Part shown: positions 10,057-43,286 of the stretch, piece after piece
Layout: each line of letters begins with the position of its first letter
Numbering within the stretch: position 1 is the stretch's first letter
NCBI GenBank assembly: GCA_947259095.1
Contig: CAMYLA010000024.1
Span: forward strand, 31,149-88,303
Direction: 5' to 3'
DNA: 57,155 bases
From: an uncultured Acidimicrobiaceae bacterium
GTDB taxonomy: Bacteria; Actinomycetota; Acidimicrobiia; Acidimicrobiales; SZUA-35
Notes under the pieces: generated by a model
Told to the model about the DNA's origin: nothing
Database searches by the model: none
Seen by the model: the letters and a program-made list of their open reading frames with translations, nothing else
Program-made: the position numbers and the translations under genes

Positions 10057-10953
10057 ATGACCGAAACCCGCCGAACCCATCGCTCCCATGTGAGCTACAT
10101 CGACAAGTCCAGGGAGTACTACGCCGCCCACGGCTATGAGCAGCCGTACCGATGGGCGGCCAATGATGAGGCACCGTTCACGCCGCTACCCAAGCCGCTG
10201 TCGGAGTGCAAGGTGGGGTTGGTCACCACGGCCTACTTCCTGCCGGACGGCTTCGTGTACCGGGTCCCGTCCGACCTGCCCCGGATCCCGGCCACCGCCA
10301 CCAAGGGCCAGATCGACAACCTCGACACCAGCCATCTGTCGTGGGCCAAGGACGAGACCCACACCGACGACCCCAACAGCTTCCTGCCGCTGACCCAGCT
10401 CGAACGGCTGGTCGACGAGGGTCGTCTCGGTTCGCTCTCCGAGCGGTTCTACTGCCTCCCGACCCAGTTCAGCCATCGCCAGACGCAGCGCCGCGATGCG
10501 CCACAGATCCTGGAGTGGATGGAGGAGGACGACGTCGACGTTGCGTTGCTCGTGCCGCTTTGACCGGTCTGCCACCAGTCCGTGAGTCTGGGCGCACGAC
10601 ATTTTGAGCAAGCAGGTATCCCGACGGTCGTGGTCGGCTCCGCCCGCGACATCGTGGAGGAGGCCGGGGTGGCCCGGTTCCTCTTCGTCGACTTCCCGCT
10701 GGGGAATCCGTGCGGCAAACCGGGCGACGTCGACATGCAACGGAGCATCGCCGAGTCGGCGGTCGATCTGCTGGAGCGGGCCTTTGTGCCCCGGACCACC
10801 GTCCAGGCCCCGTTCGTCTGGGACGAGGCCGATGACGATTGGCGGCTCCGGTTCATGCACGTCGGCGACGACAACCGGGGCGACCTGGCCGAGGCCGGCG
10901 CCGAGCGCCGCCGCCTCCAAGAGGAGATTCGGGAAGGTACGCCGGCGGGCTGA
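10057..10953 (+). CDS. GrdB/PrdB-like selenoprotein (Sec169, U-x-x-C)
   Basis: Two consecutive frames (10057-10563 and the continuation to 10953) are in phase and separated only by TGA at 10561-10563. Read as selenocysteine this gives a 298-residue protein with the redox motif U169-P-V-C172 inside VALLVP-U-PVCHQS, the environment of the selenoprotein B family of glycine/sarcosine/betaine/D-proline reductases. Similarity continues on both sides without a break. AGGAG at 10047-10051 precedes ATG 10057. A hairpin follows the UGA (10575-10591). Members like this in aerobes are of unknown substrate; a thiol/selenol redox role is likely. The alternative, a nonsense mutation, is disfavoured by the motif, the hairpin and two further selenoprotein genes nearby. 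Confidence 0.85.
10575..10591 (+). promoter_or_regulatory. Candidate bacterial SECIS of the GrdB-like gene
   Basis: Arms CCAGTC (10575-10580) and GTCTGG (10586-10591) pair with one U-U mismatch and enclose the loop CGTGA. The loop starts 17 nt after the UGA, within the usual 16-37 nt for bacterial SECIS elements, and has G at loop position 2. The CGUG loop is shared with the other two selenoprotein genes of the window. Lower stem pairing is weak. Confidence 0.6.
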
Positions 10954-11006
10954 CCGCCGGCCCGGTGTAAGGCGGCGGGCTGACCGCCGGCCCGGTGTGA
11001 GGCGGC
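10941..11006. repeat. Duplicated terminator-like hairpin, 30-bp units
   Basis: Between the convergent selenoprotein and sulfurtransferase genes a 30-bp unit occurs twice (first copy from about 10945, second from about 10975). The first copy forms a perfect hairpin with arms GCCGGCGG (10941-10948) and CCGCCGGC (10954-10961) and loop GCTGA; the TGA in the loop is the stop codon of the selenoprotein gene. The second copy has one arm mismatch. No U-tract follows, so this would be a GC-hairpin type, possibly bidirectional, terminator. Confidence 0.65.
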
Positions 11007-11031
11007 GAGCCGCATCGACTGCGGCCGGTTG

Positions 11032-11877
11032 TCAGATGTCGAGTGGTAACCCGGCGGCCTGCCACTCGCTGAGAGAGCCGTCGTACACGCCGATGTTCTC
11101 GTGGCCGAGCCTGGACAGGGTGAAGGCATCACTGGTGGCGGCGATGCCCCCGCCGCACCAGGTGATGATGCGGTCGCCGCCGACCCCTGCGCCCTCGAAC
11201 ATCGACCGCAGCTCGTCCAGTGGTCGGTAGCGGTGGGTCTCGGGGTCGACCAGGTGCACGGCATACACGTTCTTCGAGGACGGGATGTGGCCGGGGCGTC
11301 CGTAGCCGGTGTCGGTACCGGCGTGGACGGCCGGCGACAGGGCGTTGACCAGACAGACCGCCTCGTCGCCGGTGGCGGCCTCCACCTCGGACCGGCCGAC
11401 CACCAGGCCCGATCGGGGCTCGGCGATCAGCGTGACCGGTTCGTGTTCAGGCCCGGCCCCGGTGGAGGTCGGCCGGCCCTCACCGGTCCACGCCTTCCAA
11501 CCGCCGTCGAGCACCGCGGCGTCGTCGAAGCCAATCGACTGCAACAGCCACCACACCCTGGTGGCCCACATGTTGAACGCCCGGTCGTACAGCACCACTC
11601 GTGTCCCGGCCCCGATGCCCCTCCTGGCGAACGCCTCGGCCAGCCCGGCCGGTTCAAGGGCGGTGAACCGCAGGGCCGAGTCGGGATCGGAGAGTTCGGC
11701 CGCCTGGTCGATGAACCCGCTCCCCGGTATGTTGCCCGCTGCGAACGCCTCCGCGCCGGACTCGATTCGATAGCCGCCCCCATCGGTCGGTCGGAGGAAC
11801 ACGGTGCAATCGAAAACCCGGAGATCGTCGGTTCCGAGTTTTGCCGCCAGTTCGTCGGTGGAAACGAGCACGTCCAT
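11032..11877 (-). CDS. Thiosulfate / 3-mercaptopyruvate sulfurtransferase (tandem rhodanese)
   Basis: A 281-residue two-domain rhodanese. The inactive N-terminal domain has LRVFDCTVFLRP and GSGFIDQAAELSDP; the C-terminal domain carries the catalytic loop TWCGGGIAAT with the sulfur-accepting Cys. The loop CGGGIAA departs from the mercaptopyruvate CGSGVTA and the thiosulfate CRxGxxA types, so donor preference is uncertain. It would transfer sulfane sulfur to cyanide or a thiol. It lies next to a selenoprotein gene, but convergently, so no operon is implied. Confidence 0.9.
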   Translation of the reverse strand: MDVLVSTDELAAKLGTDDLRVFDCTVFLRPTDGGGYRIESGAEAFAAGNIPGSGFIDQAAELSDPDSALRFTALEPAGLAEAFARRGIGAGTRVVLYDRAFNMWATRVWWLLQSIGFDDAAVLDGGWKAWTGEGRPTSTGAGPEHEPVTLIAEPRSGLVVGRSEVEAATGDEAVCLVNALSPAVHAGTDTGYGRPGHIPSSKNVYAVHLVDPETHRYRPLDELRSMFEGAGVGGDRIITWCGGGIAATSDAFTLSRLGHENIGVYDGSLSEWQAAGLPLDI

Positions 11878-11968
11878 GGCTTGGCCTTTCAGTAGAGGGC
11901 TCGGGATCGTGAACCTAGGCCCGATCGCTTCCCGGTACCAGCCGCCTGGGCTCTAACCTGAAGGCGGT

Positions 11969-12502
11969 ATGACGTTCCAGCCAAGCACCGAAGAACTCTT
12001 GAACCGCAACAACGAGTACGCCGTGGAGTTCCACGACAGCGAGCTGCAGGTCCGCCCGAAGCGGCAGCTGGCCATCGTGGCCTGCATGGATTCGCGGATC
12101 GACACCTTCGCCATCCTCGGCCTGGGCAACGGCGACGCCCACATCATCCGCAACGCAGGCGGGATCATCACCGACGACGTGATCCGCTCCCTGTGTCTTT
12201 CGCAACGGTTCCTCGGGACCAGGGAGATCATCCTGGTTCATCACACCGACTGCGGCCTGCAGTCGGTCGACGAGGCCATCTTCCGCGACGAGCTCAACGC
12301 CGAGCTCGGGGTGAAGCCGTGGTGGTCGCTCGAGGCCTTCTCCGACCCGTTCGACGATGTCCGCCAATCGATCCAACGGCTCTACATGACACCCTTCGTT
12401 GCCTACAAGGAGCACATTCGGGGTTTCGTCTACGACGTGACCACCGGTCTGCTCGACGAGGTCCAGGGCAGCAGACCGGTCGACGAAGACCGCTCAACCT
12501 GA
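11969..12502 (+). CDS. Beta-class carbonic anhydrase
   Basis: A 177-residue beta carbonic anhydrase with the zinc ligands in order: Cys in ACMDSRID (with the Asp-Arg dyad), then His and Cys in HHTDCG. GNGDAHIIRNAGG is the family's substrate-access segment. It converts CO2 and bicarbonate in the cytoplasm. The length is that of the short beta forms of actinobacteria. It is divergent from the sulfurtransferase and ends shortly before a 25-bp tandem repeat. Confidence 0.93.
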   Translation: MTFQPSTEELLNRNNEYAVEFHDSELQVRPKRQLAIVACMDSRIDTFAILGLGNGDAHIIRNAGGIITDDVIRSLCLSQRFLGTREIILVHHTDCGLQSVDEAIFRDELNAELGVKPWWSLEAFSDPFDDVRQSIQRLYMTPFVAYKEHIRGFVYDVTTGLLDEVQGSRPVDEDRST

Positions 12503-12514
12503 GCCATCACTGTC

Positions 12515-12583
12515 CTCACGGTGCTTCCAGCACGGTGTGCTTACGGTGCTTCCAGCACGGTGTGCTCACGGTGCTTCCAGCAC
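12515..12583. repeat. 25-bp tandem repeat made of a gene's last codons and stop
   Basis: Units begin at 12515, 12540 and 12565; the first two are 25 bp and differ at one base, the third is complete for 19 bp. On the minus strand the third copy is the authentic end of the PEP-utilising gene (last codons plus TGA at 12568-12566), so copies 1 and 2 are duplications of that end into the intergenic space. Each contains GTGCT and AGCAC arms around GGA, a small hairpin that may act as terminator between the convergent genes. Confidence 0.8.
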
Positions 12584-14293
12584 CTTGATCGTGCCTTCGG
12601 TGCCGTCGACCTCAACCAGCATGCCGTCCTGGAGCCTGGCGGTCGCCCCGTCCACGGCAACCACGCAGGGGATGGCCAGCTCCCGGGCCACGATCACCGC
12701 ATGGCTCATCAGCGCCCCGACATTGACCACCACCGCCGCTGCGGGGAGGAACAGCGGGGTCCACGAGGGGTCGGTCAGGGGGGCAACCAGGATCTCGCCT
12801 GGTTCCAGGGCGCTACAGTCTGCCGGATCGAGCACCACCCGGACCCGGCCGGTCGCCACCCCGCTGGAGCCGGCGTTGCCGGACAGCTGCCCACCGACAT
12901 GGATCGCCTCCGGTGGTGCCTGCTGTTCGGCCTCGAGTTCCTCGATGGTCGGCACCTCGTTCTGGGAAGTGATGAAGAAACGTGGCTCGACCGCGCTGAA
13001 CCGGGCGTGCAGGGCGGCGCGCTCGGCCAGGACCTCGGCCATCGAGGCCGGGTCTTCCAGGTAGGCCGGCAGCTCGGTCTGAGGGTAGAGCAGGGCCACC
13101 GCCACCGGATCGGGATTGCCACCTCGCTCGGCGGCTCGCCGGACCAACTCCCGGTAGGCCTGCTTTGCTGCCAATGACGCTCGGACCGCCCGATCCCTGG
13201 TTGCCTCACGGGCCTGGGCCCAGTACGGGGCGGCCTTGATGGCCCGATCGAAGTTGGTCCGGTCGAGGAAGTTCAGGTGGGGTCGGATCTCAGCGATCGC
13301 CGCCTCCCGTCTTGCCTGATCATCGGCCAACCGGGACGCCGGAGACAGGTCGGTGTCGGACCGCCGCATCACGTCGACCGCGGCCAGTGCGAGCTCCGGG
13401 GTGTTGTCCCAGGTCCGGCTGGACAGCTCCCAGTCGTTGGGGCCCCGATGACCGTGCTTGGCCACGAAGGCCTTGAACGAGGTGAGAAAATCCTCGGCCG
13501 TCGGCGTGCCGGCCAGCCGGTCGGCCAGGTCGTCGACCCCGCCGTCGAACGCCTCCATCAGAACGGGCTCGGCCTTGACCAGCTTGGCGATGTCGTTCAG
13601 GTCATGGGAGTACTGGGCCGAGCGGACATCGCCGGCAGCCCCGATCAGGTGGGTGACCAGGCCGGGTTGGCCCGCCGCCACCGCCGCATCGGCCAGAACC
13701 CCGGACACGATGGCGGCGATCGCCGTGGACTTCATGTGGTTGCCGAACACCGGCCCGAAGGTGTCACCGTAGAAGGAGAGATAGTCCAGCAGCACCGAAT
13801 CGGGGGCGTCGAGCGGCGGCCGCCTGGCTTCGATCACCGCCGTTCTGGTGAAGCTGTCGGCCACCACCGGCGGTAGCTCCTTGGTGCCCAGGGCCTTCAG
13901 CACCGTGCGGAGGATCTTGATCGATGACCGCAGGCTCTTGTCGCCCTTGCGGGGCACATAGGTCGGGGGATCGCCCTCGCCGAAGAACGACACGTCGATC
14001 GCCTCGGCCGACGAGCCGGGGGCCCGGACACCCATCATCCGCAGGTAGGAGAGGTTGAGATAGGAGTAGCCGCCGTAGAGCCCGATGATGACAGGGTCGT
14101 CGCTGGCGAAATCGGACTTGGACAGGATGCCGAGCTCATCGTAGGCGCTGCGCCAGGCGGCCTCGGCGGGGATGACCGCCAGCTCGTAGGTCAGGGCCGT
14201 GATGACCTCGGGAAACACCTCGCCGATGTTGCCCCTGGTGTTGATCGGCCACCGAGGGTCGATCTTGCCCTCGATGATCCAGCGTTGTCCCAT
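12566..14293 (-). CDS. PEP-utilising enzyme mobile-domain protein
   Basis: A 575-residue protein whose C-terminal 100 residues are the swivelling phosphohistidine domain of PEP synthase/PPDK-type enzymes: GVATGRVRVV, then GALMSHAVIVARE with the phosphorylatable His, and IPCVV. The N-terminal 450 residues resemble the central region of rifampicin phosphotransferase and PEP-synthase-like proteins (NTRGNIGEVFPEVITAL, FVAKHGHRGPNDWEL), but the ATP-grasp domain is absent. It would need a partner to phosphorylate the His, or act as a subunit. ATG 14293 is the only sensible start. No ATP-grasp gene is adjacent. Confidence 0.8.
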   Translation of the reverse strand: MGQRWIIEGKIDPRWPINTRGNIGEVFPEVITALTYELAVIPAEAAWRSAYDELGILSKSDFASDDPVIIGLYGGYSYLNLSYLRMMGVRAPGSSAEAIDVSFFGEGDPPTYVPRKGDKSLRSSIKILRTVLKALGTKELPPVVADSFTRTAVIEARRPPLDAPDSVLLDYLSFYGDTFGPVFGNHMKSTAIAAIVSGVLADAAVAAGQPGLVTHLIGAAGDVRSAQYSHDLNDIAKLVKAEPVLMEAFDGGVDDLADRLAGTPTAEDFLTSFKAFVAKHGHRGPNDWELSSRTWDNTPELALAAVDVMRRSDTDLSPASRLADDQARREAAIAEIRPHLNFLDRTNFDRAIKAAPYWAQAREATRDRAVRASLAAKQAYRELVRRAAERGGNPDPVAVALLYPQTELPAYLEDPASMAEVLAERAALHARFSAVEPRFFITSQNEVPTIEELEAEQQAPPEAIHVGGQLSGNAGSSGVATGRVRVVLDPADCSALEPGEILVAPLTDPSWTPLFLPAAAVVVNVGALMSHAVIVARELAIPCVVAVDGATARLQDGMLVEVDGTEGTIKVLEAP

Positions 14294-14392
14294 GCCACTC
14301 CTCGTCCGCTCGATGGGGAAAGCGATGTGGGGAGAGAGGGTACCGCACCGACTCCGATGCGGATAGTTGATGGCCGCAGGTCGGCTTGGAGC

Positions 14393-15301: not shown

Positions 15302-15349
15302 GACCTCTCCTGGGTGGTTCGGGGTGGTCCGTCGAGCATCGGCCGGGTG

Positions 15350-16453
15350 TCAGGGCCGGGGAAAGGCGACGCCGTCCATCAGCTTGCGGGCGGTTCGGAT
15401 GATGCCGGACCGTTCGGCCACCGGCCTGCCGTCTTCGTCGAACGAAACGGTGATGGCGGCCTCGAAGCCGCCGGTCGGGTGTTCCAGGAGCACGGTGTCT
15501 CCGGGGTCGGTCGACCGAGCGACCTGGGCCGCCGGCGAGCCGGGCAGCCTGGCTGCAGTGGCAACGCTCACCGCCCCCAGTACCCCGATGGCCTGGTGGC
15601 AACGGTGGGGAATGAACGTCCTGGTGCTGAGGGCCCCCGATCCGGTGGGCGGTGAGACCATCGTCAGCTTTGGCACGGTGGCCTCGGCCACGTCGCCGAG
15701 GCCCATGATCGGCCCGGCCGCAAGCCGGATCGACTCCAACCGGTGCCGCAGGCCGGTGTCGGTCTCCAGCTCGACCGGGGACTCGGTGCCGACCACGCCC
15801 ATGGCGTCGGCTCGCATCACCACCACCGGCATGCCGTTGTCGATGAGGGTCACCTCGATGCCGTCGATGGTGTCCACCACGTTGCCGGTCGGCAGCAACG
15901 CCCCGCACGACGAACCGGCGACGTCGTCGAAATCGAGCCGGATCGGGGCCCCTGCGCCCGGCACGCCCGCCACCACCGCATCGCCGTCGTAGACCACCCG
16001 ATCGCCGTCGAGCCTCACCGTGGCGGTGGCGGTCCCCCCGGTGTTGCGGAGTCGGATCCCGACCCGGGCCAGGCCGTCGTGTGAGCGGGGAAACGTCGAC
16101 GGGTCGAGCAACCGGCGCTCGAAGGCGAACGGCGCCACCGCGGCCAACATGTTGCCGCAGTTCTGCCGATCGCTGACCAACGCCTCGTCGACGGAGACCT
16201 GGAGAAACAGGTAGTCGAGATCGGCGCCGTCTGTGCCGTCGACCGACACGATCGCCACCTTGCTGGTCAGCGGGTGGGCACCACCCAGGCCGTCGATCTG
16301 GCGCTCGTCCGGCGACCCCATCAACCGCAGCAGCAGATCGTCCCGCTCATCGGGATCGGCCGGCACATCGGCACCGTCGAGCACCAGGCCCTTCGAGGTG
16401 CCGCCCCGCATCAGCATCACGGCAACGCCATCGACCGCAGAGTTGCCGGACAT
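15350..16453 (-). CDS. PrpF/GalD-like 4-oxalomesaconate tautomerase
   Basis: A 367-residue protein of the PrpF isomerase family, built from two diaminopimelate-epimerase-like halves. MLMRGGTSKGLVL at the start, QIDGLGGAHPLTSKVAIV and QNCGNMLAAVAPFA are diagnostic. PrpF enzymes isomerise aconitates; GalD interconverts 4-oxalomesaconate tautomers in gallate and protocatechuate breakdown. Its position 48 bp upstream of the LigI-like gene, same strand, supports the GalD role. No ring-cleavage dioxygenase or hydratase/aldolase of this route lies in the window. Confidence 0.85.
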   Translation of the reverse strand: MSGNSAVDGVAVMLMRGGTSKGLVLDGADVPADPDERDDLLLRLMGSPDERQIDGLGGAHPLTSKVAIVSVDGTDGADLDYLFLQVSVDEALVSDRQNCGNMLAAVAPFAFERRLLDPSTFPRSHDGLARVGIRLRNTGGTATATVRLDGDRVVYDGDAVVAGVPGAGAPIRLDFDDVAGSSCGALLPTGNVVDTIDGIEVTLIDNGMPVVVMRADAMGVVGTESPVELETDTGLRHRLESIRLAAGPIMGLGDVAEATVPKLTMVSPPTGSGALSTRTFIPHRCHQAIGVLGAVSVATAARLPGSPAAQVARSTDPGDTVLLEHPTGGFEAAITVSFDEDGRPVAERSGIIRTARKLMDGVAFPRP

Positions 16454-16501
16454 CGGGTCAAGTGTGCCAAGTGGCGTGGCGGTTGTCGACCGGGCGCAGG
16501 G

Positions 16502-17551
16502 TCACTCCTGGCTCACCCGCTTCACCAGATCCAGTGCCCGGCCCAGCGTTGCCACCCGCTCGTCCAGCGTGCGCCCGGCCGGGGCCAGCCGGAGGGTGTC
16601 GACGCCGGCGTCCCGGTAGGCCCGGATCCTGGCCGCCACGCTGTCATCGTCGCCAAGCAGGTTCGTCTGCAGCACCAGCTCGTCCGGCACTGCGGCGATG
16701 GCCTCGTCCCGCCTCCCGTCGACCCAGAGTTGCTGGACCTCGATACAGGCTTCCTCGAACCCTGCCCGACGGTAGGCCTCGTTGTAGAAGTTGGTGGTTG
16801 GCGAACCCATGGCTCCGAGGGAGAAGGCGGTCCCCGCCCGGTGGGGCTCCATCAGTTCATCGAGATCGTCGCCGAAGCGCACCGAGCCACCGACCTGCAC
16901 GTCGATGTCTGCCATCGATCGGCCCGCCGACTCGGCCCCCTGCCGGATCGAGTCCAGGAGGGCCCCGCCGGCCTCGGGGACGAAGGAGGTTCCGACCCAA
17001 CCGTCGGCCACCGCCCCGGTCAGCTCCAGGGCCTTCGGGCCGAGCGTTGCCAGGTAGACCGGGATCCGGTCGTCGGCCGGTTGGGCCAGCCGCAACGCCT
17101 TGCCCTGACCGCCGGGCCGGGGCAGCACGTACTGGTTGCCGTCGTAGACGAGCTTCTCGCCGGCGAAGGCGAGGCGGAGGATGTCGACGTACTCCCGCAG
17201 CCGCTCGAGCGGCCGGGCGAACGGCTGACCGGTCAACCCCTCGACGACCTGGGGGCCACTGACCCCGAGGCCCAGCACGAACCGGCCGTCGGAGATGGTC
17301 GACATGGTCATGGCGCTCATCGCTGCCATCGACGGCGCCCGGGCGCTGACCTGCATGATCCCGGTGCCGAGCTTGATCCGATCGGTCACCGCCGCCAGAT
17401 AGGCCAGCGTGGTCAGGCAGTCCTGGCCCCAGGCCTCGGCCGACCAGCAATAGTCGACGCCGAGTTTTTCGGCCTCCGTGATGAAATCGACCTGCTGCTG
17501 CCAGTCCTCCTTGCCGCTGGCCGCCCCTCCCACTCCCACTGCTGTTCTCAT
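16502..17551 (-). CDS. LLM-class F420-dependent oxidoreductase
   Basis: A 349-residue luciferase-like barrel protein. Motifs are DYCWSAEAWGQDCLTTLAYL, the family loop KLGTGIMQVSARAPSMAAM, and GRFVLGLGVSGPQVVEGL with IYLATLGPKALEL later (here VYLATLGPKALEL). Actinobacterial members mostly use coenzyme F420 rather than FMN. It may oxidise an alcohol or reduce an unsaturated acid; substrate unknown. It begins a leftward run with PrpF and LigI-like genes (49-bp spacing) and is divergent from the sulfatase operon. Confidence 0.88.
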   Translation of the reverse strand: MRTAVGVGGAASGKEDWQQQVDFITEAEKLGVDYCWSAEAWGQDCLTTLAYLAAVTDRIKLGTGIMQVSARAPSMAAMSAMTMSTISDGRFVLGLGVSGPQVVEGLTGQPFARPLERLREYVDILRLAFAGEKLVYDGNQYVLPRPGGQGKALRLAQPADDRIPVYLATLGPKALELTGAVADGWVGTSFVPEAGGALLDSIRQGAESAGRSMADIDVQVGGSVRFGDDLDELMEPHRAGTAFSLGAMGSPTTNFYNEAYRRAGFEEACIEVQQLWVDGRRDEAIAAVPDELVLQTNLLGDDDSVAARIRAYRDAGVDTLRLAPAGRTLDERVATLGRALDLVKRVSQE

Positions 17552-21836: not shown

Positions 21837-21949
21837 GGGAACCCTCCGGGTGGGAACCCTTCGGGTTCCTCGAGTTCGGCTGTGCCGAACGTCGGGTAAG
21901 GGGAACCCTCCGGGTGGCTCGAGTTCGGCTGTGCCGAACGTCGGGTAAG
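21837..21949. repeat. Duplicated hairpin repeat downstream of the arylsulfatase
   Basis: Two copies of a composite unit follow the stop codon. GGGAACCCTCCGGGTGG occurs at 21837-21853 and 21901-21917. A 32-bp block starting CTCGAG and containing GTTCGGC-TGT-GCCGAAC (7-bp perfect hairpin) occurs at 21869-21900 and 21918-21949, identical in both. A third, slightly diverged block lies at 24254-24281. The hairpins may terminate the sulfatase operon. The recurrence across a decayed island suggests a REP-like or recombination-prone element. Confidence 0.8.
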
Positions 21950-21951
21950 GG

Positions 21952-26553: not shown

Positions 26554-27569
26554 GGTCGAGGGCACACCAGCGGCGCCGCGGCCAGCAGGGCGTCATCGGC
26601 GATCCCGACCGCGGCCGCCAGCTCGGCGTCGATGGTGATCGTGGCCGAGTGGTCGATCGCCACCGAGGCTCGGACGACCAGGAACGGGTCGACGGTGGCG
26701 ACCGACACCAGGGTGTCGATCGGGCCACCCCGGCCCAGCCTGGCCCGGCCGTGGGTCCGGCACCGACCGGTGACCGTCTCGTCGAGCTCGGCCACCACGG
26801 TGGGGCCGCCGTCGATCGGGTCGTACATGCCGTTCGGCGTCAAGCCCTCGGCCCGAAGCAGATGGAATGCCGGCATCGAGGCGGCATTGACCGGACCCAA
26901 CGATTCGAGCACCTCGGCGGTCAGCGGCCGGACGTTGCCGGCCAGCTCGTCCAGCCGGTCGGGTTCACCGATGAGCGCCAGTTCGGCCTCGGTCGAGGTC
27001 TGCCAGTGCGGAGCGAGGTGGGCGCCGAAGCAGCGCCAGAACGGCGCCGAGCCATCGGCGTCGAACCGGCCCCGAAGGTGGGAGGCCACCGTCTCGGGGA
27101 TCTGGCTGTGGACCAGGTGGAGCAGCATGAAGCGACCCCGCGACAGCAGCGTGCCCAGATGCCGACCTCTGGCTCGTGGCCCGAGGAAGCTGGAATCCAG
27201 TTCGGTCCTGGTCCAAGGGGCCGAGGTGCTGTGCATGATGAGGCCCTCGCCGTCATCGCTGGTGGTGACCTTCACCGCCAGGTTGGCAACCGCTCGCTTG
27301 AAGGTCACGCCGGTCAGGCCCAGCAGCTCACCGCCGGTGTCGCAGGCCAGGAACAGCAAACGACGTTTTGCGCCATCGTCGAGCCGGAACGAGCCGGTGG
27401 CCAGCGCAGCCACCGTGTCGGCGGTGTCGAGACAGGCCTGTTCGGCCGCTGGTGCCGAGCCCGGCAACGACGACATGCCGATCACTTCGGTTGCGGCCGG
27501 GGCCAGCAGCTCCCAGATCGCCTCGGCGTCGTCAACCTTGGCCGGCCGCAGCAGGACCGGCGCCCTCAC
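26550..27569 (-). CDS. astA: Arginine N-succinyltransferase
   Basis: A 339-residue AstA acetyltransferase-like enzyme. VLLRPAKVDDAEAIWELL opens the GNAT-like fold; SSFLGPRARGRHLGTLLSRGRFM and the PFWRCFGAHL segment match the family. It transfers succinyl from succinyl-CoA to arginine, step 1 of the pathway. GTG 27569 overlaps the M20 gene stop as GTGA, so translation is coupled. Only astA and astB of the usual astCADBE set are present here. Confidence 0.92.
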   Translation of the reverse strand: MRAPVLLRPAKVDDAEAIWELLAPAATEVIGMSSLPGSAPAAEQACLDTADTVAALATGSFRLDDGAKRRLLFLACDTGGELLGLTGVTFKRAVANLAVKVTTSDDGEGLIMHSTSAPWTRTELDSSFLGPRARGRHLGTLLSRGRFMLLHLVHSQIPETVASHLRGRFDADGSAPFWRCFGAHLAPHWQTSTEAELALIGEPDRLDELAGNVRPLTAEVLESLGPVNAASMPAFHLLRAEGLTPNGMYDPIDGGPTVVAELDETVTGRCRTHGRARLGRGGPIDTLVSVATVDPFLVVRASVAIDHSATITIDAELAAAVGIADDALLAAAPLVCPRP

Positions 27570-28780
27570 GTTGGTCCACCGACCGATTCCGTCGATCGCC
27601 GGTGGGCCCGACGGAGGACCTCGGCCACCACTGCGGCCCGCTGGGGGATGCTGTCGACGTCGGCGAACTCGGCCGAGCTGTGGATGCCTCCGCCGGCGAT
27701 GCCGAGGCTGTCGACGTTCGTCAGTCCGGCGGCGGCGAGATCGTTGCCGTCGCAGCAGCCCCCGGTGTCCTCCGGGGTGATCTCGGTGCCGAGCTGGGCG
27801 GCCGCATCCGAGACGTCGGCCAGCATGTGGTCCAGCGCCGCGGTCCGGACCTTCGGGGGCCGGGTCGAGATCCAGATCAGCTCGACGTCGAGATCGGACT
27901 CCTCGGCGGCCTCGGCGAACCGCTGCTCGATCCACCGCTGGTCCTCGGGCGACTCGACCCGCATGTTGAACCCGGCCATGGCGAAGTCGGGGACCACGTT
28001 CAGCGCACCCCCGCCGGAGATCCGACCGCAGTTCACCGTCACCCCCGGCCGCTGGTTGTGGGCTTCGAGCCGGGCCACCAGCGCCGCCAGCCCGAGGATG
28101 GCCGAGCGGCCCTCGTGGTGGGCCCGCCCGGCGTGGGCCGCCACCCCGCGGACGACGAGGTGGCCGATGAGTGAGCCCTTCCGGGCCGCGGCCACCCCAC
28201 TGGACGGCAGGGCCGGTTCGAAGCCGAGGCCGATGTCGGCCGCGTCGGCCGCCTCCCGCAGCAGACCTTTCGAACTGATGGAGCCGATCTCCTCATCGGG
28301 GACCACCAGCAGTTCCCAGCCGATCTCGGCTCCCCATGCCACCGTGTCGAGATGGCGCAGTACCTCACCGGCCAACACCAGGCCGCCCTTGCAGTCCGCC
28401 ACCCCCGGCCCGAGCAGCCGTCGATCGGCGACGGTGACCGATTGGAACGGGTCATCGGGTGCGAACACGGTGTCGAGGTGGCCGAACAGGCAGACCCGGA
28501 ACGGGGCGTCTGCCCGCTTGACGGCCCGCAGCGCGTTGCCGACCGGCCGGGCGCTGCGGATGCCGTTTGCGTCGAGGACCGGCGACGGGTCGACCGGGAT
28601 CGACTCCAGGGTGTCCGGCGAGAGCCGGGTCACGATGTCGGCCAGCCGTTCCCCGCACCGATTGACCCCTTCGGGGTTGTAGGACCCGGAGTTGATCTCG
28701 GCCAGCGACACCACTGTGGCGGTCAGTTCGTCGAGCCGGTCGGCCAGCGCCGCTCGGAGCGGTTCGGTGGTGATCGTCAT
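27566..28780 (-). CDS. M20-family metallohydrolase (amidohydrolase/carboxypeptidase)
   Basis: A 404-residue di-zinc hydrolase of the M20/ArgE/DapE group. Visible metal and catalytic motifs are FGHLDTVF, GPGVADCKGGL, VPDEEIGSISSK, and the C-terminal HSSAEFADV; the dimerisation domain includes GVAAHAGRAHHEGRSAI. Close to the glutamate carboxypeptidase subgroup. It lies directly upstream of astA with a 4-bp overlap, so it is part of the arginine succinyltransferase operon. Because M20 enzymes deacylate N-acyl amino acids, it could replace AstE as succinylglutamate desuccinylase (inference). Confidence 0.88.
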   Translation of the reverse strand: MTITTEPLRAALADRLDELTATVVSLAEINSGSYNPEGVNRCGERLADIVTRLSPDTLESIPVDPSPVLDANGIRSARPVGNALRAVKRADAPFRVCLFGHLDTVFAPDDPFQSVTVADRRLLGPGVADCKGGLVLAGEVLRHLDTVAWGAEIGWELLVVPDEEIGSISSKGLLREAADAADIGLGFEPALPSSGVAAARKGSLIGHLVVRGVAAHAGRAHHEGRSAILGLAALVARLEAHNQRPGVTVNCGRISGGGALNVVPDFAMAGFNMRVESPEDQRWIEQRFAEAAEESDLDVELIWISTRPPKVRTAALDHMLADVSDAAAQLGTEITPEDTGGCCDGNDLAAAGLTNVDSLGIAGGGIHSSAEFADVDSIPQRAAVVAEVLRRAHRRSTESVGGPT

Positions 28781-28816
28781 GTCGATTCGTCCTTCTGTCC
28801 TGGTTGATGCGGCCGG

Positions 28817-29911
28817 TCACGGCTGTCGATGTCGATCGGCCTCCACAAGCATGGCCCGAAGGACCCCGGAGGAGACGTTGGCCCCACACGACACCACGGC
28901 CACCGTGGAGCCGGGGTGCTCGCTCCCGTATCGCTCGGCTGCGGCCAGTGCCACCCCGGCCGCCCCCTCCACCAGCTCGTGATGGTCGTCGATCATGTTG
29001 GCCACCGCCATCGCGATCTCGGTTTCGCTGACCGCAGTCCAGCGATCCACCAGGTCCCGACAGATCGGAAAGGTGATCGACCCCGGTTCCACGGCACCGG
29101 CGGTGCCGTCGGAGAAGGTTGCGGTCGCCGGCGGGGCCACGATGGTCCCGGCCGCCACCGAGGCGGCCATGGCCCGGTCGTTGGCCGGGGAGGCGCCGAT
29201 CACCACCGTGCCCGGTGCGTGGGCGGCCAGCCCCGATGCGATCCCGGAGATCAAGCCGCCGCCGCCAACCGCCGCCACCACCGCATCGAGTGGCCCGATG
29301 CCGAGGGCCGCCACATCCTCGACGAGCTCGGCGGCGATCGTGCCCTGGCCGGCGATGATGTGGCGATCGTTGTATGGCGAGATGTAGACCAGTCCCTTGT
29401 CGTCGGCCGCATCGCCTGCCGCCGCCTCGGCCAACGCGGTGTCGGTTCCGCCGACGGTCACGATGGTGGCCCCGAGGCGGGCGATGGCGTCGACCTTGGA
29501 TTGTGAGGCGCCGGCGGGGAGATAGACCATGCACGGCACCCCCCTTGTCGCGGCGGCGGTTGCCACCCCGATGCCGTGGTTGCCCGAGGATGCGGTGACG
29601 ATGCCGCCGGCGGCCTGGTCCTCCGGCAGTGCGAACACCTTGTTCATTGCGCCCCGGAGTTTGAAGCTGCCGGTCAGCTGACGGTGTTCGGCCTTGATCA
29701 ACAGCGTGGCCCCGGTCCGGTCCGACATCGGGCCCGAGGCCAGCAGCGGCGTCCGGCTCACCCGACCTGCGATCCGGCCGGCCGCCGCTTCGATGTCGGC
29801 CGCTGCCACCTCGGTCAGCTCGGTGACCTCGGTGTTGGAGCTCGTCCCGGTCGCCGTCCGGCCAGGCCGGGATCGGGTCTCGACGGTGTGGTGGTCATGG
29901 GGCGAGGTCAT
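28817..29911 (-). CDS. Threonine/serine dehydratase-like PLP enzyme
   Basis: A 364-residue fold-type II PLP enzyme. The PLP Lys is in LTGSFKLRGAMNK, the substrate loop is TASSGNHGIGVA, the phosphate cradle is VGGGGLISGIA, and the pyridine-N partner region is VVSCGANVS. There is no C-terminal ACT domain, so it is a catabolic-type threonine or hydroxyaspartate ammonia-lyase. The first 35 residues are low-complexity and a later start is possible. It sits 36 bp upstream of the M20/ast genes, same strand, and may be co-transcribed in amino-acid catabolism. Confidence 0.88.
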   Translation of the reverse strand: MTSPHDHHTVETRSRPGRTATGTSSNTEVTELTEVAAADIEAAAGRIAGRVSRTPLLASGPMSDRTGATLLIKAEHRQLTGSFKLRGAMNKVFALPEDQAAGGIVTASSGNHGIGVATAAATRGVPCMVYLPAGASQSKVDAIARLGATIVTVGGTDTALAEAAAGDAADDKGLVYISPYNDRHIIAGQGTIAAELVEDVAALGIGPLDAVVAAVGGGGLISGIASGLAAHAPGTVVIGASPANDRAMAASVAAGTIVAPPATATFSDGTAGAVEPGSITFPICRDLVDRWTAVSETEIAMAVANMIDDHHELVEGAAGVALAAAERYGSEHPGSTVAVVSCGANVSSGVLRAMLVEADRHRQP

Positions 29912-37138: not shown

Positions 37139-37164
37139 GCTGCCGCCACCGGCCATGACAGTGG

Positions 37165-37204
37165 CGCCGATGCCGATGCCGATACCGATGCCGATACCGA
37201 TGCT
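37165..37204. repeat. Hexamer repeat GATGCC/GATACC
   Basis: About six tandem copies of a 6-bp unit (GATGCC alternating with GATACC, so a 12-bp higher-order period) fill the gap between the convergent VOC and AhpD-like genes and touch the latter's stop codon (CTA at 37203-37205). Confidence 0.7.
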
Positions 37205-38321
37205 AGGACGAGCTGTTGTCGAACAGCGCGTCGACGGTGGTGAACTCGGCGGCCGCAATCTCGTCGACTCTGGAGTTGGCGGCGCCACCGAGTTGGTCGA
37301 GGGCCAGTTCGTCGCGGAGCTGCGCACTCACCGCGGCCAGGCCGTCGTCGATGGGGATGCCGGTGCCGTCGGCCACCCTCACCAGGCCGGAGAAGGCGGT
37401 GACGGTGGCTGCGGCATGGGCGGTGCCGGCCGGCCCGATCCGATCCAGCAGCCGGTTGCGGAGCGGGTCGACCTCGTCGGTGGCCAGGACGACCGCCTCG
37501 GCGAAGTCGATCAGCAGCCCACCTTCGGCGATGCCGATGGCGGCATCGCCTCCCCGCTCGCCATGCTCGACGCCGGCCACCGTGGCCGACACATCGACGT
37601 CCAACCCGGCATCTTCGCTGCTCGCACGGAGCAGCGTGGTGTGGGCGGTCGTTCAATAGAAGCACTCGTTCATCGCCGCCACCCGCGATGCCACCAACTC
37701 CACCTGGGGCCGGGTCAACGGTGTCTGCCATTGCAGCGAGGAGAATCCCGGCGCCGAATAGGTGGGGACCGAGACGCAGCGGAACAGCTTGTTGGCCTCG
37801 GGAACGAGACTCAGCGCCCGGGCGACGTTGGCCGCCGGGAACGGGTCGAGGGCCACGACGTGGGCGCCGATGTCGCCGAGGCCGTCGGGCCGCAGCCTGC
37901 TCGGCTCACCCTCGCCGGCGCGGGGGAGCGGCGTCCGGGCCACACCGACCGCCTCGGCGAAGACGTCGACCATCACCACGGTGGCGACCACCGCGATCAG
38001 CTCCACATAGGCCCCGTCGCCGATGTCGGCGATGGCCTTCTCGGCCCAGGGTCGATCGATGCTGCCGGCGTCGAGGGTGATCCTGTCGACGATGGCAACC
38101 GCCCCGTCGCTCAGCCCGGCCTGGGACGGCGTGACCGTCCGCAGCCACGGTGGGGTGGCACGCAGCGAGAACAGCAGCCGGGCCCGCTCGGCGATGGCGA
38201 TCCGCTCCGCTGCCGTCCACCATGTTCCGGGCCGAGCCAGCATGTCCCAGGCGTCTCGATGGGATCGGGCGATCTCGTCGCCGACGGCAACCGGCGTGTC
38301 GTCATAGGTGAACAGGGTCAT
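37203..38321 (-). CDS. AhpD-like selenoprotein (C220-x-x-Sec223)
   Basis: The frame from ATG 38321 meets TGA at 37655-37653 and continues in phase to 37203. Reading the UGA as Sec gives 372 residues with AAMNEC-FY-U-TTAHTTLLR, the CxxC...H motif of AhpD / carboxymuconolactone-decarboxylase proteins with Sec in the second position (C220, U223, H227). Homology-like sequence extends across the UGA. A perfect 8-bp hairpin follows. AhpD proteins are thiol reductases or peroxidases; a Sec form should be a strong peroxidase or reductase. The gene stands alone between convergent neighbours. Confidence 0.88.
37616..37636 (-). promoter_or_regulatory. Candidate bacterial SECIS of the AhpD-like gene
   Basis: Minus-strand arms CGCTGCTC (37636-37629) and GAGCAGCG (37623-37616) are perfectly complementary over 8 bp and enclose loop CGTGC. 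The loop begins 24 nt after the UGA (37655-37653) and has G at position 2. These match bacterial SECIS rules. It is the best of the three hairpins. Confidence 0.75.
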
Positions 38322-38396
38322 GGCCGAAGCTTAGGCCGGGCCCGGACGCCGGGCCCAGCGTGACGTTCCGGGGCCGCCCCGGCAAACCGCAGCCTC

Positions 38397-38696: not shown

Positions 38697-38804
38697 CACC
38701 GACCGGACTGTACTGCGGCCCCGGACGAACCGCAGGCCCGGGCCGCGGGGTTCAGCGGCTCGGAAACTGTACAAGCCGGGCCGCCCGGTGCCAGGCTGAG
38801 ACCC

Positions 38805-39701: not shown

Positions 39702-39748
39702 TCTCGGACCGAGCGGGCCGAGGTGGGGAGCGGACTGAAAGGAAGGCT

Positions 39749-40933
39749 ATGGAGCAGCGCACGATCAAGGGCCGGGTTGCCGTCGTCGGCATCGGCGAAA
39801 CCACATACTACAAACGGGGCCAGTCGCCCGATCCGGAGTTCAGACTGGTGTTGGCGGCCATCCGCAACGCCTGCGACGACGCCGGTCTCGACCCGAGAAC
39901 CATCGACGGGTTCACCTCCTACAGCAACGACCGGAACATGCCGGCCCGTCTGGCCAACGCCTTCGGGCTGCCGGAGCTGCGATATTCGGTGATGCAGTGG
40001 GGCTCCGGTGGTGGGGGTGCGGCGGCGGCGATCGGCAATGCGGCAGCGGCGGTCAACGCCGGCTACGCCGAGTGCGTCGTTGCCTACCGGGGTCTGGCCC
40101 AGGGCCAGTTCGGACGGTTCGGGGCCGGAGCGAAGGTCAACTCGGTGAGCGGGCCGGCGGCCTTCACCGTGCCATACGGGGTGATGTCGCCGGCCCAGAC
40201 CTACGCCATGAGAACCACCAGGCTCTTCCACGAGCACAACATCTCGCCCGACACCCTGAAGGCGGTGGCCATGGCCGCCTACCACCACGCCCAGAACAAC
40301 CCTCGAGCGGTGATGCACGGCCGGGTCCTCGACGCCGAGACCTACGACCAGGCCCGCTGGATCACCGAACCGTTCCGGCTGTACGACTGCTGCCTGGAGA
40401 ACGACGGCGCGGCGGCGGTCATCGTGATGTCGGCCGATCGGGCCCGGGACGTGACCGACACCCCGGTCTACCCGTTGTCGATCCAGCAGGGTGGTCCCCA
40501 TCGTTCGGGGGCCGGGGTCCACAATCAACCCGACTACGCCACGTCGAGTTTCAAGACCACCGCACCTCACCTCTACGCCCAGGCCGGGGTGGGACCACAG
40601 GACGTCGACGTCGTGCAGTCCTACGAGAACTTCACCGGGGCGGTGGTGATGAGCCTGATCGAGCACGGCCTGTGCAGCTACGAGAACGCAAACGAGGTGT
40701 TGACCTTCGAGAACCTCACCGCACCGGACGGCGACCTGCCGCTCAACACCAGCGGCGGCAACCTGGCCGAGTGCTACATGCACGGGTTGGGGCTGCAGAT
40801 CGAAGCCATCCGCCAGATCCGGGGCTCGTCGACCAATCAGGTTGCCGGGGCCAAGGTCGCCCTGGCCAACGCCGGACCGATGGTCGAAGTCGCCAGCACC
40901 GCGCTCTACGGCACCGAGGAGGCGCTCTCATGA
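39749..40933 (+). CDS. Thiolase-like acyltransferase
   Basis: A 394-residue thiolase-fold protein of the lipid-transfer/SCPx-like group. It begins VAVVGIGETTYYKRGQS, has GGGGAAAAIGNAAAAV in place of the usual reactive-Cys helix (no nucleophilic Cys there), and NTSGGNLAECYMHGL near the C-terminus. Such proteins pair with DUF35 Zn-ribbon partners, and here one follows with a 4-bp overlap. Substrate is probably an acyl- or steroid-CoA; retro-aldol chemistry is known for relatives. GAAAGGAAGG precedes ATG 39749. Confidence 0.88.
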   Translation: MEQRTIKGRVAVVGIGETTYYKRGQSPDPEFRLVLAAIRNACDDAGLDPRTIDGFTSYSNDRNMPARLANAFGLPELRYSVMQWGSGGGGAAAAIGNAAAAVNAGYAECVVAYRGLAQGQFGRFGAGAKVNSVSGPAAFTVPYGVMSPAQTYAMRTTRLFHEHNISPDTLKAVAMAAYHHAQNNPRAVMHGRVLDAETYDQARWITEPFRLYDCCLENDGAAAVIVMSADRARDVTDTPVYPLSIQQGGPHRSGAGVHNQPDYATSSFKTTAPHLYAQAGVGPQDVDVVQSYENFTGAVVMSLIEHGLCSYENANEVLTFENLTAPDGDLPLNTSGGNLAECYMHGLGLQIEAIRQIRGSSTNQVAGAKVALANAGPMVEVASTALYGTEEALS

Positions 40934-41409
40934 GCGACGTCACCAGCGATCGACCCGGCCCCTACCTGGCTCCGGGCCTGGCCGCCCCCCGCCCGGCCCG
41001 GGACGGGCTCGACGGACCGTACTGGTCCGGGGCCCGGGAACATGTGCTACGGGTGCAGCGCTGCGACGACTGCGGCACCTTCCAGTGGGGCCCGGAGTGG
41101 ATGTGCCACCACTGCATGAGCTTCGACGTCGGTTGGACCCAGGTCGAGCCCCGAGGCACGATCTACAGCTGGCAGCGGCCCCACCACCCGGTTCACCCGG
41201 CGCTGAACGACCAGGGCCCCTACCTCGTGGTCCTGGTCGAACTGCCCCACGCCGGCGGGATCCGCATGGTCGGCAACCTGTTGGGCGACCCGCTGCAGGA
41301 GGTGGTGATCGGAGCCGACGTCGATGCGGTGTTCGAGGACCACGACGATGCAGATCCACCGTTCACGCTGGTCCAGTGGCGGGTCGGGACCGGCGGGGTG
41401 GACCGATGA
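40930..41409 (+). CDS. Zn-ribbon / OB-fold DUF35 protein
   Basis: A 159-residue DUF35-type protein: the zinc ribbon is RCDDCGTFQWGPEWMCHHC (two C-x2-C pairs), followed by an OB-fold segment with YSWQRPHHPVHPAL and VVLVELPHAGGIRMVGNL. These proteins act as partner subunits of thiolase-like enzymes. ATG 40930 overlaps the thiolase stop and its own stop overlaps the UGSC start (both ATGA), so all three are translated in a chain. Confidence 0.92.
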   Translation: MSDVTSDRPGPYLAPGLAAPRPARDGLDGPYWSGAREHVLRVQRCDDCGTFQWGPEWMCHHCMSFDVGWTQVEPRGTIYSWQRPHHPVHPALNDQGPYLVVLVELPHAGGIRMVGNLLGDPLQEVVIGADVDAVFEDHDDADPPFTLVQWRVGTGGVDR

Positions 41410-43286
41410 CGGGAACCGCTTCGACCGAACCCCGCCCCGACGCCGGCCCGCAGGAGGTGGCCGCCGGTGATGGCCGGCCGACATACGAGGTGGTGTGGCC
41501 CAAGTCGGCGATGGGGATCCAGCCGCAGCGCTCGGCCCCTCGGCTCGATTCGTTTGACGGCAGCCGGATCGCCTTCCTCTGGGACTACGTCTTTCGTGGC
41601 GACGAGTTGTTCCCGGCCCTGGAGCGAGCGCTGCTCGACCGTTTCCACGGTGTGGAGATCGTGGGCTACCAGGAGTTCGGCAACACCCACGGCGCCGATG
41701 AGAAGGAGCGGATCGCCACCCTGCCGCAGTTCCTCCGGGACCGCCACATCGATGCGGTGGTCTCGGGGATGGGTTGTTGAGGTAGCTGCACGCCCGCCGT
41801 GATGCGGGCATCCATCGCAGCCGAGATCGCAGGGTTCCCATCGGTGTCGATCGTCTGTCCTGGGTTCGAGGGTCAGGCCGTGGCCACCGCCAGAGGTCAC
41901 GGCCTCGACGATCCGGCGTTGGCGCTGACCACCGGTCACGTCGATGCCCAGTCCACCGAGCGGATGCTCGGCGACTTCCTCGACGACACGGTGGGGCAGA
42001 TCGTCGCCGCCCTGACCGGGTCCGGACGATCGGGGGCCACGGCCCCGGCCCCGGCCGACGAGGCCCTCGCCCCGGTCGGTGCCGGGGTCGACGGGGATGT
42101 GGCCCCGGTCGGTGCCGGTGTCGGTGCGGTGGCCGAACCGTCGGCGCTCGATGTGGTCGCGGTGGGCACGATCGACGAGATCAACCGCCGGTTCGTCGAG
42201 CGTGGCTGGTCGGACGGCTCCCCGATCATCCCCCCCACCAGGGACCGGGTCGAGGCCTTCATCGGCCCATCGGGCCACGATCCATGGAAGCGGCTGGGCG
42301 TGGCGGCGTCGTCGGGCCGGGACATGACCATCTGGTCGATCGCCGTCAACGGGGTGATGGCCGGGTGCCGGCCGGAGGACCTGCCGGTGCTGATCGCCGC
42401 CGCCGAGGTGCTGGCCGACCCCCGCTACGGCATGGAGCACTCCGGCAACACCACCGGGGCAGACGCGCTGATGATCGTCAACGGTCCGGTGGTTGACGAA
42501 CTCGGATTCAACCACGGCCCTGGCGCACTGCGGGACGGCGCCCCGGTCAACACCAGCATCGGTCGCTGGCTCCGACTCTACCTCCGCAACGTCGGCGGCT
42601 TCACCGCAGACGAGCACGACAAGGCCACGTTCGGCAACACGTTCCGGGTGGTGCTGGCCGAGGACGAGGCGGCGCTGGCCGACGTCGGCTGGGCACCGCT
42701 CAGCGCGGAGTTCGGCTTCTCCCGAGGCGACGACGTGTTGACCATGGTCCGCCTCAATTCGGGGGCCATCATCGGTAGCGTCTTCGGCGCCGACCCGGAG
42801 CAGATCGTGCCGTATCTGGCAGACGGCGTGGCCGGGATCGGCGGCTGGGACCTGACCCACAACCACGGCCTCGGCCATCACCAGTTCCGGCCGCTGCTCG
42901 TCCTGTCGCCGATCCTGGCCCGGACCTTCGCCGCCGCCGGCTGGTCGAAATCCGAGGTCCGCCGGGCCCTGTTCGAGCAGGCCAGGATTCCGGCTCGACG
43001 CTACGAGAAGCTGATCGGCGAGTGGAGCAACCTCAGTGCCGGTCGGCCCCGGTTGGTCGACCTGGTGGCCGACGGGCACCTCCCGGTGGTCTTCGCCGTC
43101 GACGACGACCCCGATCGTCCGGTCCCGGTGGTGGTCGATCCGGGCCACATCATGATCGCCGTGGCCGGGGACCCCAACCGGACAAACGCCTTTGTGTTCA
43201 GCAACGACGGGCCTCACGGCGACTACACGGCCAAGGCCATCGACCGGCGGCCAGCCGACGATCTGGTCTGTCGGATCGAGCCCTGA
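41406..43286 (+). CDS. UGSC-family selenoprotein with large C-terminal domain
   Basis: ATG 41406 overlaps the DUF35 stop. TGA at 41778-41780 interrupts a continuous frame to 43286. Read as Sec it gives 626 residues with M-G-C124-U125-G-S-C128, the exact signature that names the UGSC (seleno)protein family. The N-terminal 125 residues (FDGSRIAFLWDYVFRGDEL, NTHGADEKERIATLP) and residues 126-205 fit the family on both sides of Sec. A Gly/Ala/Pro linker (about 205-245) leads to a 380-residue domain opening GWSDGSPIIPPTRDRVEAF, with VNGVMAGCRPEDLPV and HNHGLGHHQFRP. Function is unknown; the operon suggests acyl-CoA-linked selenol redox chemistry. Confidence 0.9.
41792..41809 (+). promoter_or_regulatory. 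Candidate bacterial SECIS of the UGSC gene
   Basis: Arms GCCCGC (41792-41797) and GCGGGC (41804-41809) pair perfectly around loop CGTGAT. The loop begins 17 nt after the UGA (41778-41780), the same distance as in the GrdB-like gene, with G at loop position 2. Confidence 0.7.

What the first reader, a model, noticed from the sequence alone, without database searches (positions are those of the whole stretch)
10057..43286. Three selenoprotein genes in 57 kb of an apparently actinobacterial genome
Three unrelated redox families (GrdB/PrdB-like, AhpD-like, UGSC) each carry exactly one in-frame UGA at the position where a redox Cys/Sec is expected, with homology on both sides. One could be a mutation; three at active-site positions are not chance. 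Automated annotation will split each into two fragments (10057-10563 and downstream; 38321-37653 and downstream; 41406-41780 and downstream).
Basis: partly seen in the sequence, partly recalled or inferred. Interest (0 to 1): 0.93.

Follow-up and report, generated by a model that had tools for sequence, protein, structure and literature searches.

The report
Three selenoprotein genes in an actinobacterium
Three genes in this likely actinobacterial genome fragment each carry one in-frame UGA that relatives keep as UGA or, in two of the three families, replace with cysteine, and the same genome assembly holds the genes for selenocysteine, so they are predicted to make selenium-containing redox proteins of known families, in an assembly with at least 18 such UGA sites.

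Summary
Each gene is open on both sides of one TGA (10561-10563 +, 37655-37653 -, 41778-41780 +). In the loci read, the site is TGA in 29 of 30 (PrdB-like), 26 of 30 (UGSC) and 27 of 27 (AhpD-like); all five exceptions are TGC. The assembly (G000) has tRNA-Sec, selA-selB and two UGA-containing selD genes. A hairpin after the UGA has conserved pairing; its apical GU is GC in all five Cys forms. UGSC genomes without a UGA form mostly lack selA. So the selenoprotein reading is supported, short of protein data. All three families are known as selenoproteins (PMC2398784), so these are new members of a known kind. Added here: at least 18 verified UGA sites in this assembly; UGSC nearly always occurs with a partner domain that has no family model (80 genomes have both, of 82 and 82), fused to it in the window; UGSC and the PrdB-like protein look distantly homologous; the PrdB-like genes are orphans, as no PrdA/GrdE-type gene was found. 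What these proteins reduce is unknown.

The parts
10057..10953 (+). GrdB/PrdB-like orphan selenoprotein gene, read through UGA (298 aa)
   Evidence: PF07355 24.2 bits over 22; TIGR04483 85 bits, below cut-off 300
10561..10563 (+). in-frame UGA (Sec169), U-P-V-C-H
   Evidence: TGA in 29 of 30 loci read (the window's own among them), TGC in 1; C in 35 of 35 database rows of A3
10574..10592 (+). SECIS-like hairpin (family register), apical GU at 10582-10583
   Evidence: single-sequence z-score +0.57, so support is comparative only
37203..38321 (-). AhpD-related selenoprotein gene (NF041238, CFYUT), 372 aa
   Evidence: 294.9 bits, cut-off 175
37653..37655 (-). in-frame UGA (Sec223), C-F-Y-U-T
   Evidence: TGA in 27 of 27 readable loci of 30 fetched (the window's own among them)
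37616..37636 (-). SECIS-like hairpin, apical GU at 37627-37626
   Evidence: (z -1.67 on 50 nt, -2.93 on 43 nt)
41406..43286 (+). UGSC selenoprotein fused to a partner domain (probably 'Unknown_1' of the 2008 GOS paper, by inference), 626 aa
   Evidence: PF24696 86.5 bits, cut-off 25
41778..41780 (+). in-frame UGA (Sec125), C-U-G-S-C
   Evidence: 26 TGA, 4 TGC of 30 loci read; TGA in the 24 of 25 related fused loci that cover the site
41792..41809 (+). SECIS-like hairpin, apical GU at 41799-41800; codons CCC GCC GTG xTG CGG
   Evidence: each of CCC, GCC, GTG and CGG is the only codon used in 24 of 24 fused sequences
42126..43283 (+). C-terminal partner domain, no Pfam or NCBIfam match
   Evidence: best NCBIfam row E 0.65, chance level
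39749..40933 (+). thiolase-like gene (Thiolase_C_1) upstream of UGSC; neighbourhood not conserved
   Evidence: seen in 1 of 25 related loci
40930..41409 (+). ChsH2-like zinc-ribbon/OB protein, overlapping the UGSC start
9189..9977 (+). short-chain dehydrogenase upstream of the PrdB-like gene

Best explanation
Each of the three genes is interrupted by one UGA that is very likely read as selenocysteine, with the help of a predicted hairpin just after the UGA and of the selA, selB, selD and tRNA-Sec genes found in the same genome assembly. Shown: the frames; UGA or Cys at one aligned position in the PrdB-like and UGSC families, and UGA alone in the AhpD loci read; the machinery genes; conserved pairing of the hairpin with an apical GU (G with U or G in AhpD); GC instead of GU in the five Cys forms. 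Inferred: actual Sec insertion and redox function. The most likely roles, inferred, are thiol/selenol reductases: the AhpD-like protein as a CxxU peroxide or disulfide reductase; the PrdB-like and UGSC proteins as UxxC enzymes whose Sec lies between a beta strand and the next helix in predicted models. UGSC would work with its partner domain as a two-part enzyme, fused here. Their substrates are unknown.
For: Site codon in the loci read: PrdB-like 29 TGA, 1 TGC; UGSC 26 TGA, 4 TGC; AhpD 27 TGA (30 best loci fetched of each); fused UGSC 24 TGA of 24 covering loci, 25 fetched. Machinery in the same assembly: tRNA-SeC with anticodon tca, selA 404 bits and selB 275 bits on one 4.8-kb contig, two selD with UGA at GAUACK. 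Hairpin: 169 of 189, 206 of 208 and 165 of 208 cells paired, against at most 109, 120 and 106 with one side slid by up to 4; apical GU 27 of 27 and 26 of 26, in AhpD G 26 of 26 and U 17 of 26; GC in 5 of 5 Cys forms. Synonymous sites are fixed over the hairpin and mostly vary around it. UGA forms go with selA: UGSC 65 genomes with and 1 without; stop-free forms only, 3 with and 11 without, Fisher 4e-10; PrdB-like 60 of 62 genomes with a UGA form have selA and both with stop-free forms only lack it; AhpD 27 of 27.
Against: No protein or 75Se data. The genome is a MAG of 229 contigs with 7.1% contamination, so contig membership is not certain; GC of the selAB contig (68.6%) and of the first 16 kb of the tRNA-Sec contig (65.7%) fits the window (68.3%). 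Single-sequence folding of two hairpins is no better than shuffles (PrdB-like z +0.57 and +0.46; UGSC -0.62 and -0.34), and in several relatives the minimum-energy fold is another one. The register was chosen from the same sequences. Cells with changes on both sides of a pair are no more frequent than in slid registers for AhpD (7 cells, slid up to 9) and few for UGSC (6 cells, slid at most 1); only PrdB-like stands out (41 cells, slid up to 21). The Cys forms still pair (6 of 7 and 29 of 32 cells), so it is mainly the GU that separates them. AhpD has GG in 9 of 26 loops and gave no Cys form. Two genomes with UGA in PrdB-like matches lack selA (70 and 79% complete); the second is also the UGSC exception. 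For the selA count, forms were classed by stops inside the match, and only the loci were read at the codon.
Confidence: 0.96

Rival explanations
1. The UGA codons are mutations or sequencing errors and the genes are broken.
For: The assembly is a draft MAG; another TGA in the window (6317-6315 -) does join two coding stretches by accident.
Against: The codon is kept in genomes of many genera, only TGA or TGC was seen in the loci read, and coding quality continues after it.
Confidence: 0.01
2. UGA is read through by another route, such as UGA as tryptophan or general suppression, not as selenocysteine.
For: None found.
Against: The site alternates with Cys, not Trp, in the loci read; the two genes at 6045-6647 end in TGA; tRNA-Sec and selAB are present; the apical GU goes with the UGA form.
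Confidence: 0.01
3. Regulated termination: the short products ending at the UGA are the main form, and Sec insertion is a minor or selenium-dependent route.
For: UGA is a stop codon; SECIS-dependent insertion is commonly incomplete (established knowledge, no call).
Against: The parts after the UGA are conserved and hold the second motif cysteine.
Confidence: 0.02

Closest known systems
AhpD-related (seleno)protein NF041238 (CFYUT)
   Same: Nearly full-length match over cut-off, same CxxU site
   Different: Nothing notable; 3 matches in this assembly, 2 of them read at the site
UGSC family (PF24696, NF041046); UGSC/Unknown_1 fusion of the GOS survey (PMC2398784, passages seen)
   Same: UGSC motif; a fusion with an unknown domain was reported there in 2008
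   Different: Divergent: 45 bits against the NCBIfam cut-off of 125. That paper suggested a thioredoxin-like fold; profile and model here point to an alpha/beta domain related to GrdB/PrdB
D-proline reductase PrdB / glycine reductase GrdB (TIGR04483, TIGR01918, PF07355)
   Same: UxxC site; similarity over residues 39-242 to PrdB and 27-166 to the C-terminal part of PF07355
   Different: Below the PrdB and selenoprotein B cut-offs; no PrdA/GrdE-type gene found in this assembly
Bacterial SECIS (E. coli fdhF type; recalled, no call)
   Same: Hairpin inside the coding region just after the UGA, with G and U in the apical loop
   Different: Stem starts at nt 14, 15 and 20 counted from the U of UGA, so the AhpD hairpin sits further away; GG in 9 of 26 AhpD loops

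Membership tests
AhpD-related selenoprotein NF041238 | score over curated cut-off 175 | tested here: met
   294.9 bits, residues 15-344 of 372
UGSC family | Pfam PF24696 cut-off 25 | tested here: met
   86.5 bits
UGSC family | NCBIfam NF041046 equivalog cut-off 125 | tested here: not met
   45 bits; a stand-alone UGSC of this assembly scores 121.7. So a UGSC-type domain, not the NCBIfam equivalog
D-proline reductase PrdB | TIGR04483 cut-off 300 | tested here: not met
   85.2 bits
D-proline / glycine reductase complex | PrdA/GrdE-type partner (PF09338) in the genome | tested here: not met
   no match in G000 (96% complete); 13 of 228 genomes of the class have one
GrdB superfamily | PF07355 cut-off 22 | tested here: met
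   24.2 bits, only just, residues 27-166
Selenoprotein (Sec) gene | in-frame UGA aligned with Cys in homologues | tested here: met
   PrdB-like and UGSC; for AhpD only UGA forms were seen
Selenoprotein (Sec) gene | selA, selB, selD, tRNA-Sec in the genome | tested here: met
   MAG with 7.1% contamination
Selenoprotein (Sec) gene | SECIS hairpin downstream | tested here: met
   comparative pairing and apical GU; single-sequence z-scores weak for two of three, and covariation above slid registers clear only for PrdB-like
Selenoprotein (Sec) gene | Sec found in the protein | not testable with these tools
   needs mass spectrometry or 75Se
Thioredoxin fold (suggested for UGSC in 2008) | thioredoxin-like structure | tested here: inconclusive

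The most novel reading that the evidence does not exclude
Acidimicrobiia are an overlooked selenoprotein-rich clade, and UGSC with its unnamed partner is an uncharacterised two-part selenoenzyme whose Sec domain shares ancestry with the GrdB/PrdB reductases; the many orphan PrdB-like copies would be separate Sec reductases that work without a PrdA/GrdE subunit.
Probability: 0.5. Interest if true: 0.65.

Novelty: new member of a known kind. Interest (0 to 1): 0.45.

Why it matters
Gene prediction with the standard stop codons cuts these proteins in two, in databases as well: 65 of the 120 listed PrdB-like relatives are fragments that end at the UGA. In the passages that I saw, reviews name deltaproteobacteria, clostridia and Synergistota, mostly anaerobes, as the selenoprotein-rich groups (PMC5029168, PMC13188914), and the second has no occurrence of 'acidimicrob' or 'actino'. 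Yet 154 of 228 genomes of this class carry selA. The genome also points to a test bed for what UGSC and orphan PrdB-like proteins reduce.

Tried and rejected
Other selenoproteins in the window: five further TGA had coding-like sequence on both sides. 6317 is an ArsR-type gene and a truncated SDR; 28819, 55676 and 16504 are neighbouring genes that share a frame; 23254 was not followed. None of the five aligned U-to-U with another candidate, but that set held no AhpD relatives and so missed the AhpD gene too. A two-member cluster (L128, L133) was not followed.

Thiolase/ChsH2 neighbourhood as a functional link to UGSC: seen in 1 of 25 related loci (L191), some of which end too near for a fair test. 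In a clustering of predicted genes from 40 fetched loci and the window, only the UGSC partner was constant near UGSC (20 of 20 loci), and nothing but the family itself near PrdB-like genes (20 of 20); the next commonest, an enoyl-CoA-hydratase-like family by look, was in 6 and 9 of 20.

Rfam on the window: no match at gathering scores. Papers, listings only: selenoprotein with Acidimicrobi 2, selenocysteine with Acidimicrobi 3, selenoprotein with Actinomycetota 14, none on this subject by title and abstract start; UGSC with selenocysteine 8, selenoprotein with UGSC and AhpD-like 5, selenoprotein with PrdB and UGSC 3, 'UGSC family' with selenoprotein 0. Passages were seen in PMC2398784, PMC13188914 and PMC5029168.
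Full report
Check of the observation. The three read-through frames are present at the stated places. Reading TGA as Sec gives a 298-aa PrdB/GrdB-like protein (10057-10953, U169), a 372-aa AhpD-like protein (38321-37203 on the minus strand, U223) and a 626-aa UGSC protein (41406-43286, U125). A codon-usage scan over the window and four other stretches of the same assembly kept 8 of 907 TGA, 2 of 239 TAG and 0 of 25 TAA with coding-like sequence on both sides. The three genes are among the eight. Four of the other five are ordinary (an ArsR-type gene followed by a truncated SDR; neighbouring genes that share a frame) and one was not followed, so this test alone would not be enough.

The site in relatives. 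Searches of 228 genomes of the class returned the PrdB-like family in 64 genomes, the UGSC domain in 82 and the AhpD-like family in 27. In the 30 best loci fetched for each family I read TGA in 29 of 30 (PrdB-like), 26 of 30 (UGSC) and 27 of 27 readable (AhpD-like); all five exceptions are TGC. The window's own gene is one of the loci for PrdB-like and AhpD. In a scan of named genomes, 24 of 25 loci with the fused UGSC protein cover the site and all 24 have TGA. Of the 120 listed PrdB-like hits in a database of predicted proteins, 65 are cut where the window's fragment ends and all 55 long ones hold C-P-x-C. The AhpD search gave no Cys form, so for that gene the UGA/Cys exchange was not seen; it scores 294.9 bits against the curated seleno-family NF041238, whose cut-off is 175.

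Machinery. The assembly that holds the window (G000, 6.39 Mb, 229 contigs, 96.5% complete, 7.1% contaminated) has a tRNA-Sec with anticodon tca (64.8 bits, cut-off 47), selA (404 bits) directly followed by selB (275 bits) on a 4.8-kb contig, and two selD genes, each with UGA at GAUACK. GC is 68.6% for the selAB contig, 65.7% for the first 16 kb of the tRNA-Sec contig and 68.3% for the window. Forms were then classed by whether a TGA lies inside the match. UGSC genomes with a TGA form have selA in 65 of 66 cases, those with stop-free forms only in 3 of 14 (Fisher 4e-10; two genomes whose rows were not printed are left out). For PrdB-like genes, 60 of 62 genomes with a TGA form have selA, the two others being 70 and 79% complete; both genomes with stop-free forms only lack it. 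All 27 AhpD genomes have selA.

Hairpin. After each UGA a stem with a small loop can form. Folding single sequences is not convincing for two of the three: z is +0.57 and +0.46 for PrdB-like, -0.62 and -0.34 for UGSC, -1.67 and -2.93 for AhpD (50 and 43 nt), and in several relatives another fold is preferred. Comparison is better: in a fixed register, 169 of 189, 206 of 208 and 165 of 208 cells pair, against at most 109, 120 and 106 with one side slid by up to 4. Changes on both sides of a pair exceed the slid registers clearly for PrdB-like (41 cells, slid up to 21), on few cells for UGSC (6, slid at most 1) and not for AhpD (7, slid up to 9). The apical GU is in 27 of 27 distinct PrdB-like and 26 of 26 UGSC sequences; in AhpD the G is in 26 of 26 and the U in 17 of 26. 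The five Cys forms still pair (6 of 7 and 29 of 32 cells) but all have GC instead of GU. In 24 fused UGSC genes the codons CCC, GCC, GTG and CGG of the hairpin are each the only codon used, while most codons around them vary; the TGT before the UGA is also fixed in these 24. The role of GU and of this placement is recalled from E. coli fdhF work, not from a call.

Size of the set. In this assembly the UGA was read at the family site in 9 of 9 PrdB-like, 5 of 5 UGSC, 2 of 2 selD (the two over the cut-off) and 2 of 3 AhpD-like matches; the third AhpD-like match has one TGA inside but was not read. That is at least 18, with the contamination caveat. One paper calls six or more selenoprotein-rich; the passages seen name deltaproteobacteria, clostridia and Synergistota, mostly anaerobes (PMC5029168, PMC13188914). 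Whether this organism is aerobic was not tested.

Whose genome. Most of the 25 named relatives of the fused UGSC protein are titled Acidimicrobiales, Acidimicrobiaceae, Acidimicrobiia or Actinomycetota, and one (L191) shares the neighbourhood; so the class is taken to be Acidimicrobiia, by inference.

What the proteins are. The PrdB-like protein passes PF07355 only just (24.2 against 22) and fails the PrdB (85 of 300) and selenoprotein B (35 of 65) cut-offs. No PrdA/GrdE-type gene was found in the assembly; 13 of 228 genomes of the class have one. It is therefore filed as a GrdB/PrdB-like orphan, not as D-proline or glycine reductase. The UGSC domain passes Pfam but not the NCBIfam equivalog. 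The C-terminal part has no Pfam or NCBIfam match above chance level, yet the family is large: 3864 proteins with E up to 0.001 among 7994 scored. The whole fused protein matches 82 of 228 genomes, nearly all printed rows lying in the partner part; UGSC is found in 82 and both in 80. In 18 of 20 loci that I fetched, and in the window, the two are fused or neighbours on one strand; L121 has no UGSC motif and in L126 they are 4 kb apart (the choice of loci was not blind). The 2008 ocean survey reported a UGSC/Unknown_1 fusion (PMC2398784, passages seen); that it is the same domain is inference, as its figure was not seen.

Relation of UGSC to PrdB-like. Profile comparison aligns 72 columns with the two UxxC motifs in register (93.6%, score 54.0); 0 of 150 column or block shuffles reach it, though the best block shuffle has 45.9 and 87%. 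PF24696 also gives a weak hit to the PrdB-like protein at the same place (E 0.23). Predicted models (mean pLDDT 87.9 and 84.4) put both Sec positions, modelled as Cys, between a strand and the next helix. This supports distant homology without proving it, and is against the thioredoxin fold suggested in 2008 without excluding it.

How it most likely works. Shown: frames, site conservation, machinery genes, hairpin conservation. Inferred: SelB with Sec-tRNA reads the UGA with the hairpin; the proteins act as selenol/thiol redox enzymes. Committed guess: AhpD-like, peroxide or disulfide reduction through CxxU; PrdB-like and UGSC, reductive chemistry through UxxC, UGSC together with its partner domain. 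The genes upstream of UGSC (thiolase-like, ChsH2-like, SDR) suggest acyl-CoA or ring metabolism nearby, but that neighbourhood is seen in 1 of 25 related loci, so it says little about function.

Verdict. The genes are new members of known selenoprotein families; the added interest lies in the large set in one Acidimicrobiia assembly, the constant UGSC partner and the orphan PrdB-like genes.

Noticed in passing
codon before the UGA in L057-L116, L157-L186, L191-L215: The third base of the codon just before the UGA is T more often than in the codons upstream (8-11%): 23 of 23 fused UGSC read, 19 of 26 UGSC, 8 of 29 PrdB-like, 7 of 27 AhpD; 0 of 5 Cys forms. Possible local context rule for Sec insertion.
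   Followed up: partly
window 6045-6293 -: Short-chain dehydrogenase that is far too short (82 aa, start and end present by look), right after an ArsR-type gene and in the same frame.
   Followed up: no
L204, L206, L207, L213: Fused UGSC protein, 59-62% identical and with TGA at the site, in records titled Candidatus Binatia or Binatota or Desulfurellaceae: possible transfer between phyla.
   Followed up: no
G000:C27:8618-9541 and C83:1757-2680: Two selD genes, both with UGA; an AhpD-like match with one TGA lies 1.7 kb from the second. Could be paralogues or contamination.
   Followed up: partly
L139 8590 -: One PrdB-like copy of this assembly has U-P-L-D instead of U-P-x-C: the second Cys of the motif is Asp.
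   Followed up: no
window 37166-37203, 51150-51230, 21852-21951, 10943-11007, 12511-12583: Short tandem repeats, several at gene ends (13-bp unit x6.2 at 51150; 12-bp unit at the end of the AhpD-like gene).
   Followed up: no
window 15350-17539, 27566-29911, 54996-56870: Neighbouring genes in the same frame separated by one TGA: false positives for a UGA read-through screen.
   Followed up: yes
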